Source of the DNA: Streptacidiphilus jiangxiensis
GTDB lineage: Bacteria > Actinomycetota > Actinomycetes > Streptomycetales > Streptomycetaceae
Reading direction: 5' to 3'
NCBI RefSeq assembly: GCF_900109465.1
Contig: NZ_FOAZ01000013.1
Coordinates: 1-64,000, forward strand
DNA: 64,000 nt
In this document: in pieces, positions 14,535 through 16,608 of the stretch
Layout: the number at the start of each line of letters is the position of its first letter
How positions within the stretch are numbered: the stretch's first letter is position 1
The notes under the pieces: generated by a model
Seen by the model: only the letters and a program-made list of their open reading frames with translations
Databases searched by the model: none
Told to the model about the DNA's origin: nothing
Position numbers and translations under genes: made by a program

Positions 14535-14694
14535 GGATGTCCTCTCGCTCGACGATCCCTCGGATGGGGACCGCGCGGGCACATCCGTAACCCCGAGCGG
14601 GCATGCACACACCAAAGGCCGAAGGCTCCACTCGTTTGCGGCAGTGGACCGTCAGCGCCTTCCGGGACGGGACCCTGACGGACCCAAAGGGGTG

Positions 14695-15072
14695 AGCGGA
14701 TCTCCAGGGTGACGCCACCGGTCCGCACCGGCACCCCGCAGGTGCGGCAGACCCAGGCCGCGTCGAGGGGGTGGTCCTGGTGGTCCGCAGGGTGGTGCTG
14801 CTGCACCACCGGCGGCTCGGCCGAGAGCTAGCGGTCCCCCCATGCGAGCAGCGACTGAACGAGTGGGACGAGGTCCCGCCCGGCTTCCGTCAGGTGGTAC
14901 TCGTAGCGCGGGGGCCGCTCGCTGTGTCGAAGCGATGGTTGCGGTAGAGCAGTTCACGCACGGCGAGCAGGGCCCACTTCTCGCCGACGATGTGGAGGGC
15001 CTCGGCGACGGAGCAGGGGCGGCCGGGCAGGGGCGCGGCGCCGGCCTTGGAGTCGGGACTCGTCGGGGTCAC
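14695..15072 (-). pseudogene. HxlR-family regulator, inactivated
   Basis: From ATG at 15072 the frame encodes a normal HxlR start (CSVAEALHIVGEKWALLAVRELL, in HTH helix 1-2, then NHRFD). At about 14921-14931 the frame breaks: the next recognisable segment is SERPPRYEYHLTEAGRDLVP in another frame, so about 30 codons holding the recognition helix and wing are missing. That second frame then meets TAG at 14830-14828, exactly where HxlR proteins have the Trp of LLAWGDRW (TGG to TAG), and beyond it reads on into LSAEPPVV and a CRTCG zinc-ribbon-like tail. At least two lesions are therefore present. The intact MFS exporter at 15133 is divergent, the usual arrangement for an HxlR repressor and its target. 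Confidence 0.8.
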
Positions 15073-15132
15073 CGCACCAGCCCCCCATAGAGGGTTGCGT
15101 ATTCAAACTCACTACCGCTAGCGTTTCGCGCC

Positions 15133-16608
15133 ATGGACTCAGTAGGAATATCAAACCTAGTCGCGGAGCCGCCCACCCGGTCCGCGCCGCATCGCCGCGC
15201 GGCGTTCCTGGTCGTCGCGGCCGCGGTCTTCGTCGCCAACCTCGACCTGTTCATCGTCAACGTCGCGCTCCCGGCGATGCAGCAGCACTTCCAGGGCAGC
15301 AGCCTGGCCACGCTGTCCTGGGTGCTCAACGCCTACGCGATCGTCTTCGCCTCGCTCCTGGTCGTCGCCGGACGGCTGGCGGACCGGGTGGGGCACCGGA
15401 CCGTGTTCCTCGCCGGGCTGGCGGTCTTCACGGCCGCCTCCGCGCTCTGCGCCCTCGCTCCGGCGGTAGGCCTGCTCGACGGCGCCCGCGTGCTCCAGGC
15501 CGTCGGGGCGGCCGCGATGATGCCCACCTCGCTGGCTCTCCTGCTCGACTCCACTCCCCCGGCCGAGCGCCCCGGCGCCATCCGGTCCTGGGCCTCCATC
15601 GGCGGGATCGCCGCCGGCCTCGGCCCCGTCCTCGGCGGACTGCTGGTCGAGGCCGACTGGCGCTGGGTCTTCGTCGTCAACGTGCCGGTCGGCGTCCTCG
15701 CCCTCGCCGCCGGCGCCCGCGTGCTGCCCCGGCCGCTCGCCAAGGAGGCCGGGCCGCTACCCGACCTCCTCGGGGCCTTGCTGCTCACCGCCGCCATCGG
15801 CGCCCTCGCGGTGGCGCTCGTCAAGGGCGACGAGTGGGGCTGGACCTCGGCCCGGGTGCTCGGCGGGCTGCTCGCCTCGGCGCTGTTGACCGCCTGGTTC
15901 CTGCGCCGTTCGGCGCACCATCCGGCGCCCGTCGTCGAACTCCCGTTGCTGCGGGTGCCCGCCTTCGCCGCGGCCAACACCGCCGCGCTGCTCTTCACCG
16001 TCGCCTTCGCCGGAATGCTGCTGACCTCGGTGCTCTGGTGCCAACACGCCTGGGGCTACTCGGCGCTGCGCACCGGGCTGGCCATCGCCCCCGGGCCCTT
16101 GCTGGTCCCGCCCGTGGCGCTGGGCAGCGCCGCGCTGGTCCGCAGGCTCGGCGCCGGACGCCTGGCGGCACTCGGCACCCTGCTGTTCGCGGGAGGCGTC
16201 GGCTGGTGGTCGGCCACCGTCGGGCTCCAACCCCACTACGCCACCGAGCTCCTGCCTGGCATGCTGTTCACCGGCCTGGGCGTCGGCCTGGTCCTCCCGA
16301 CGCTGATCGGCGCCGCCGCGGCCTCGCTGCCCCCGACCCGCTTCGCCACCGGCTCCGCCGTGACCACGATGGCCCGTCAGATCGGCGCGGTCCTCGGTGT
16401 CGCCGTGACGGTCAGCCTGCTCGGCACCCCGGGCGGGCCGCAGACCGCCCTGGACGCCTTCCGCCGTGGCTGGGCGGCGGTGATCACGGCGGTCCTGCTG
16501 GCCGGCGCGGCCTCCCTCGCCCTCGCAGCCACCCGCCGCACGCAGCGGATAATGGTCGCGACCGGCGAGCCGGCCGCGCCTGCTGCCGCGGCGGCGCCGA
16601 TCGACTGA
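15133..16608 (+). CDS. MFS drug exporter, EmrB/QacA (DHA2) type
   Basis: Encodes 491 residues with about 14 hydrophobic segments. Family motifs: the motif D1-like LDLFIVNVALPAM in helix 1, motif A GRLADRVGHRTVF between helices 2 and 3, motif C-like GPVLGGLLVEADWRWVFVVNVPVG in helix 5-6. DHA2 pumps use the proton gradient to expel drugs and are often repressed by an HxlR, TetR or MarR neighbour. Here the divergent HxlR gene is broken, so expression may be constitutive; the exported compound is unknown. The C-terminus is Ala/Pro-rich and probably cytoplasmic. Confidence 0.9.
   Translation: MDSVGISNLVAEPPTRSAPHRRAAFLVVAAAVFVANLDLFIVNVALPAMQQHFQGSSLATLSWVLNAYAIVFASLLVVAGRLADRVGHRTVFLAGLAVFTAASALCALAPAVGLLDGARVLQAVGAAAMMPTSLALLLDSTPPAERPGAIRSWASIGGIAAGLGPVLGGLLVEADWRWVFVVNVPVGVLALAAGARVLPRPLAKEAGPLPDLLGALLLTAAIGALAVALVKGDEWGWTSARVLGGLLASALLTAWFLRRSAHHPAPVVELPLLRVPAFAAANTAALLFTVAFAGMLLTSVLWCQHAWGYSALRTGLAIAPGPLLVPPVALGSAALVRRLGAGRLAALGTLLFAGGVGWWSATVGLQPHYATELLPGMLFTGLGVGLVLPTLIGAAAASLPPTRFATGSAVTTMARQIGAVLGVAVTVSLLGTPGGPQTALDAFRRGWAAVITAVLLAGAASLALAATRRTQRIMVATGEPAAPAAAAAPID

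What the first reader, a model, noticed from the sequence alone, without database searches (positions are those of the whole stretch)
14695..15072. HxlR repressor broken by deletion and amber codon beside an intact MFS pump
The HxlR gene loses about 30 codons of its DNA-binding domain with a frame change, and the conserved Trp codon of LLAWGDRW is TAG. The HTH start and the zinc-ribbon-like tail are still readable, so the decay is recent. The divergent DHA2 exporter is intact and would be released from repression.
Basis: partly seen in the sequence, partly recalled or inferred. Interest (0 to 1): 0.5.

Follow-up and report, generated by a model that had tools for sequence, protein, structure and literature searches.

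The report
Broken regulator beside an intact exporter
A soil-type actinobacterium has lost the gene-control protein that normally sits next to a drug-type export pump while keeping the pump, an ordinary kind of gene loss that a few related bacteria seem to have repeated.

Summary
The minus-strand HxlR gene (GTG at 15072) lost 91 nt of its winged-helix region at 14926/14925, shifting the frame, and an in-frame TAG (14828-14830) stands where all 13 orthologues examined have Trp. All 13 are intact and lie divergent to a homologue of the same MFS exporter. The remnants still carry the mark of purifying selection (omega about 0.10; omega = 1 rejected), so the break is late relative to this lineage's length. 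The pair is a two-gene module whose surroundings differ from those of the three same-genus copies.

Two dyads of the AGTTGGaaattCAAAC type, one intergenic and one over the first exporter codons, recur across nearly all exporter loci read and lie upstream of 10 of 19 other HxlR genes. They are the likely operators. In the window one is kept and one has a changed half-site.

Regulator loss is not unique: among 31 exporter loci HxlR is intact and adjacent in 18, broken or gone in 4, not adjacent in 9.

"Released from repression" is plausible but unproven: another HxlR gene of this genome has the same dyad upstream and could act in trans, and some HxlR proteins are activators (recalled). Ordinary regulator decay, of modest interest.

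The parts
14926..15072 (-). 5' remnant of the HxlR gene (GTG start, 49 codons, ends ...NHRFD)
   Evidence: aligned to 13 orthologues
14925..14926 (-). junction of the 91-nt deletion that removes winged-helix codons and shifts the frame
14669..14925 (-). 3' remnant of the HxlR gene (SERPPRYEY... to ...RSPLWVRQGP), out of frame with the 5' part
14828..14830 (-). in-frame TAG at the Trp position of WGDRW
   Evidence: TGG in 13 of 13 orthologues
15094..15108 (.). operator O1 candidate, GTTGCGTATTCAAAC, intergenic; the same 15-mer stands in five other exporter loci (L093, L095, L097, L098, L100)
15141..15156 (.). operator O2 candidate over exporter codons 3-8; AGTAGG half-site where 27 of 29 other loci read AGTTGG
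15119..15124 (+). TAGCGT, a possible -10 box of a leaderless exporter promoter, between O1 and the ATG (inference from sequence; no promoter scan was run)
   Evidence: conservation seen by eye
15133..16608 (+). intact DHA2/EmrB-like MFS exporter, 491 aa
   Evidence: omega 0.088 on its branch

Best explanation
The feature is a recently formed pseudogene of the local HxlR regulator in a two-gene HxlR/MFS-exporter module. Shown: a frame-shifting 91-nt deletion and an amber codon, each enough to abolish the normal protein; 13 intact orthologues; an open exporter. Inferred: in the intact module an HxlR dimer binds two dyads (O1 in the gap, O2 over the first exporter codons) that flank the exporter's promoter and represses it until an unknown ligand or redox signal appears. 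In this genome local control is gone, and the exporter is either constitutively expressed or controlled only in trans by another HxlR that reads the same dyad.
For: Deletion and TAG. 13 of 13 orthologues open, with a divergent exporter homologue beside them. Remnants: omega 0.098 on the window branch (background 0.13; 2dlnL against omega = 1 is 27.9), exporter 0.088. The window departs at 4 of 58 otherwise invariant residues of the remnants against 4 of 222 in its exporter, a hint of relaxation. Dyads recur across exporter loci, and like sites lie just upstream of 10 of 19 other HxlR genes, 18 of which have no such exporter in the stretch held.
Against: No expression or binding data. One genome per species is held, so the allele's spread is unknown; reads could not be inspected. 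The synonymous branch is long (t about 3.6 neutral units, 1.9 for the exporter), so the dating is only relative. The residue count is not decisive: an intact gene (L073) departs at 8 of 62. O2 drift is a single change, L095 with an intact HxlR also departs at O2, and two loci that lost HxlR (G194, G223) keep both dyads. No shuffled control was run for the dyad search. The direction of regulation is inferred.
Confidence: 0.82

Rival explanations
1. The exporter is still regulated in trans: another HxlR of the same genome binds the surviving dyad(s), so loss of the neighbour has little effect.
For: In the own genome the pattern GTTGNNNNTNCAAACNCACT has two mismatch-free sites: the window's O1, from which it was drawn, and one in the divergent gap beside the HxlR gene at G000:C60:293188-293207. 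A second paralogue (L009, about 50% identical) has a nearly identical stretch, GAPRDxLTARLR. In nine exporter loci HxlR is not adjacent but the dyads persist, and seven of those nine genomes hold an HxlR 69-78% identical elsewhere.
Against: L008 is only 44% identical to the module's HxlR over 116 residues; the dyad near L009 departs (2 mismatches); with up to 2 mismatches the pattern is hardly commoner than its reversed control (6+3 against 3+4); binding is untested.
Confidence: 0.4
2. Assembly or sequencing error: the gene is intact in the real genome.
For: The assembly is a 93-contig draft and reads are not available.
Against: Two independent lesions of different kinds, 4 changes at otherwise invariant residues, and a leader that reads GGGGGG where 10 of 13 orthologues read GGCAGG, all in one gene, with the neighbouring exporter open.
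Confidence: 0.04
3. The 60-aa frame-shifted product of the 5' part, or the 3' part, is a functional short protein.
For: An ORF of 60 aa exists (14890-15072).
Against: It lacks the deleted winged-helix segment, hits no Pfam family, and none of the 13 orthologues has this form.
Confidence: 0.02

Closest known systems
HxlR family (PF01638) transcriptional regulators
   Same: An intact orthologue scores 83.2 bits over 1-89 of 91 model positions; small winged-helix protein, divergent to the gene presumably controlled.
   Different: The window copy lacks a central 91 nt and is interrupted by TAG; it is a pseudogene, not a working member.
DHA2/EmrB-type MFS exporters (TIGR00711, NCBIfam)
   Same: Best NCBIfam match, 208.4 bits over residues 25-429; MFS_1 in Pfam.
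   Different: Below the curated TIGR00711 cut-off of 230.2, so not formally assigned; substrate unknown.
Loss of a local repressor beside an efflux pump (well known in general; recalled, not tested here)
   Same: Regulator broken, pump and promoter kept.
   Different: No phenotype known; a paralogous HxlR with a like dyad is present in the genome.

Membership tests
HxlR regulator (PF01638) | complete winged-helix domain matching the profile | tested here: not met
   only profile positions 55-89 of 91 match (29.9 bits, above the cut-off), with one TAG inside; the orthologue matches 1-89
HxlR regulator (PF01638) | descent from HxlR genes | tested here: met
   both remnants align to 13 orthologues
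HxlR regulator (PF01638) | binds an operator by its divergent promoter | not testable with these tools
   recurrent dyads found, binding not assayed
DHA2 (EmrB) MFS exporter | match to the MFS family over the transporter's length | tested here: met
   PF07690 143.6 bits over 29-422
DHA2 (EmrB) MFS exporter | curated TIGR00711 cut-off | tested here: not met
   208.4 bits against 230.2
DHA2 (EmrB) MFS exporter | drug export | not testable with these tools
   no assay

The most novel reading that the evidence does not exclude
This exporter family repeatedly sheds its adjacent HxlR repressor while keeping promoter and operators: an open exporter with a broken or missing HxlR in three loci (window, G194, G223), a head-to-head fusion deletion in a fourth (G128), and relocation in a group of seven loci from the genus that holds Kitasatospora. 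That would mean either repeated selection for constitutive export or hand-over of the operator to a trans-acting HxlR, so that local regulator loss is a recurring regulatory switch and not random decay.
Probability: 0.25. Interest if true: 0.4.

Novelty: new member of a known kind. Interest (0 to 1): 0.2.

Why it matters
As a single pseudogene it matters little beyond annotation. Its value is as one of several natural losses of the regulator beside the same exporter, with conserved candidate operators. That gives a ready comparative set for testing whether loss of a local regulator leads to constitutive export or to take-over by a paralogue.

Tried and rejected
In the DNA alignment the G001 row is in the wrong orientation; it was not used for counts. 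A plasmid search gave only short partial hits (3 records, best 21% of the query). An exact two-operator pattern over 391 genomes of the order found 3, the own one among them; it is too strict to measure how widespread the module is. A symmetric dyad pattern with up to 1 mismatch in the own genome gives fewer hits than its reversed control (16+16 against 20+20), so it is uninformative. The stricter O1 pattern with up to 2 mismatches is near its control (6+3 against 3+4); only its two mismatch-free sites are argued from, and the control's mismatch-free count was not shown. Five paper searches (listings and starts of abstracts only, no paper opened) listed 1, 0, 1, 2 and 10 (of 410) papers; none looked like a study of an HxlR regulator of an MFS pump in Streptomyces. 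I do not claim that none exists. Rejected: assembly error (two lesions of different kinds), functional short protein (none of 13 orthologues has a short form), and old decay (omega = 1 rejected on the remnants). Rows dropped: 18 of the 48 exporter matches were not examined (the lowest-scoring; no locus came with them). Exporter loci were read with about 1.5 kb on each side, so 'not adjacent' means not within that. One of the nine 'not adjacent' loci (L113, G234) does hold a distant HxlR-like stretch (32% identical, E 2e-9) some 0.7 kb upstream of the exporter, which I did not count as the module's HxlR.

Full report
What is there. On the minus strand from GTG at 15072 the window encodes VTPTSPDSKAGAAPLPGRPCSVAEALHIVGEKWALLAVRELLYRNHRFD, then the frame shifts and SERPPRYEYHLTEAGRDLVPLVQSLLAWGDR*LSAEPPVV... 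continues in another frame. In three of the 14 same-genus genomes searched (own included) the homologous DNA matches in pieces that abut at the same query base, with exactly 91 extra bases between them. In 13 of 13 orthologues 31 codons separate the two motifs and the WGDRW tryptophan codon is TGG; the window has 2 nt and TAG at 14828-14830. All 13 orthologues are open from start to stop, and each lies divergent to a homologue of the window's exporter. The exporter (15133-16608, 491 aa) hits MFS_1 over 29-422; its best NCBIfam match is TIGR00711 (EmrB, DHA2), below that model's cut-off.

Where it comes from. Named orthologues sit in records called Kitasatospora, Streptomyces and Actinomadura hibisca. 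Of seven window proteins around the locus, only the exporter finds a match (E up to 1e-6) in the three same-genus loci or in five named loci. The exporter trees do not place the window with its genus-mates. The pair therefore looks like a two-gene module that has moved, by horizontal transfer or old duplication; the route was not resolved.

Age of the break. Omega = 1 is rejected (2dlnL 27.9) and omega = 0.2 lies near the 95% limit (3.97). The exporter gives 0.088 (first run). The 13 other HxlR branches, each tested alone, range from 0.02 to 0.27. The branch is long (t about 3.6, against 1.9 for the exporter), so no absolute date is possible. Signs of relaxation are small: 4 of 58 otherwise invariant residues changed in the remnants against 4 of 222 in the exporter, and third-position GC is 0.89 against 0.94 in the exporter. 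But an intact gene (L073) departs at 8 of 62, and intact HxlR genes range from 0.86 to 0.98 in third-position GC, so neither is decisive.

Operators. The gap and the first exporter codons hold two dyads: O1 at 15094-15108 (GTTGCGTATTCAAAC) and O2 at 15141-15156 (AGTAGGAATATCAAAC). Among the 29 other exporter loci read, O2 is of the AGTTGG type in 27, AGTTCC in L095 (read from the same locus), and deleted in L108; the window alone reads AGTAGG. The O1 15-mer of the window stands unchanged in five others. The script's O1 call for L091 picked up O2 instead; its gap reads GGTTGTGTTCTCGGACTC, so O1 there is divergent. Dyads of the same kind lie just upstream of 10 of 19 other HxlR genes fetched, and the same expressions hit nowhere else in those roughly 3.5-kb loci (no shuffled control). 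18 of those 19 have no such exporter in the stretch held, and the 19th has a 36% identical MFS. This supports the reading that the dyads are HxlR operators.

Other losses. Of 31 exporter loci placed on a tree (30 of the 48 matches, plus L079), HxlR is intact and adjacent in 18, broken or gone in 4, and not adjacent in 9 (13 of the 18 read in full, the other five judged from unbroken matches). The four are: the window; G194, where the leader and GTG start remain but no HxlR follows; G128, where the front parts of both genes and the gap are missing, most simply by one deletion; and G223, where about 77 bp of HxlR remain. They lie on separate branches. G194 and G223 keep both dyads. In the nine 'not adjacent' loci the dyads also persist. 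Of those nine genomes, seven have an HxlR 69-78% identical elsewhere, and two (G078, G234) only 52% and 48%; G194 too has one (79%) elsewhere.

What follows for function. Local control of the exporter is lost in this genome. Whether the exporter is constitutive is open. The own genome has 13 PF01638 matches including the broken one. One intact HxlR at G000:C60 (L008/L147) lies divergent to a short-chain-dehydrogenase-like ORF (named from its N-terminal sequence, no family search), and the gap between them holds GTTGGAAATCCAAACTCACT. This and the window's O1 are the only mismatch-free matches of the O1 pattern in the 9.5-Mb assembly. That HxlR proteins include activators as well as repressors is recalled, not from a call.

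Literature. Five searches, listings and starts of abstracts only; none of the listed papers looked like a study of this module.

Verdict. It is an ordinary regulator pseudogene, with mild added interest from the recurrence.

Noticed in passing
L108 and L150 (G128), around L150 4996: In a same-family genome the N-terminal parts of both HxlR and exporter and the shared promoter are missing, so that the two genes are fused head to head.
   Followed up: partly
L096/L149 (G194) and L119/L151 (G223): HxlR is gone (leader and GTG kept) or reduced to about 77 bp beside an exporter gene with both dyads kept.
   Followed up: partly
L147 4187-4203 (G000:C60:293187-293203): The own genome has an intact HxlR divergent to an SDR-like gene with a GGTTGGAAATCCAAACT dyad, the same kind as the exporter's operators.
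   Followed up: partly
L069 (G160), HxlR gene: The orthologue carries a long His/Asp/Gly/Pro-rich insertion before the CxxC tail; this linker varies greatly in length among orthologues.
   Followed up: no
window 15119-15133: TAGCGT 8 bp before the exporter ATG, kept in many orthologues, suggests a leaderless exporter transcript.
   Followed up: no
G000:C90:39736-40281 (L010, L012): One ORF of 281 aa holds two weak HxlR-like domains in tandem.
   Followed up: no
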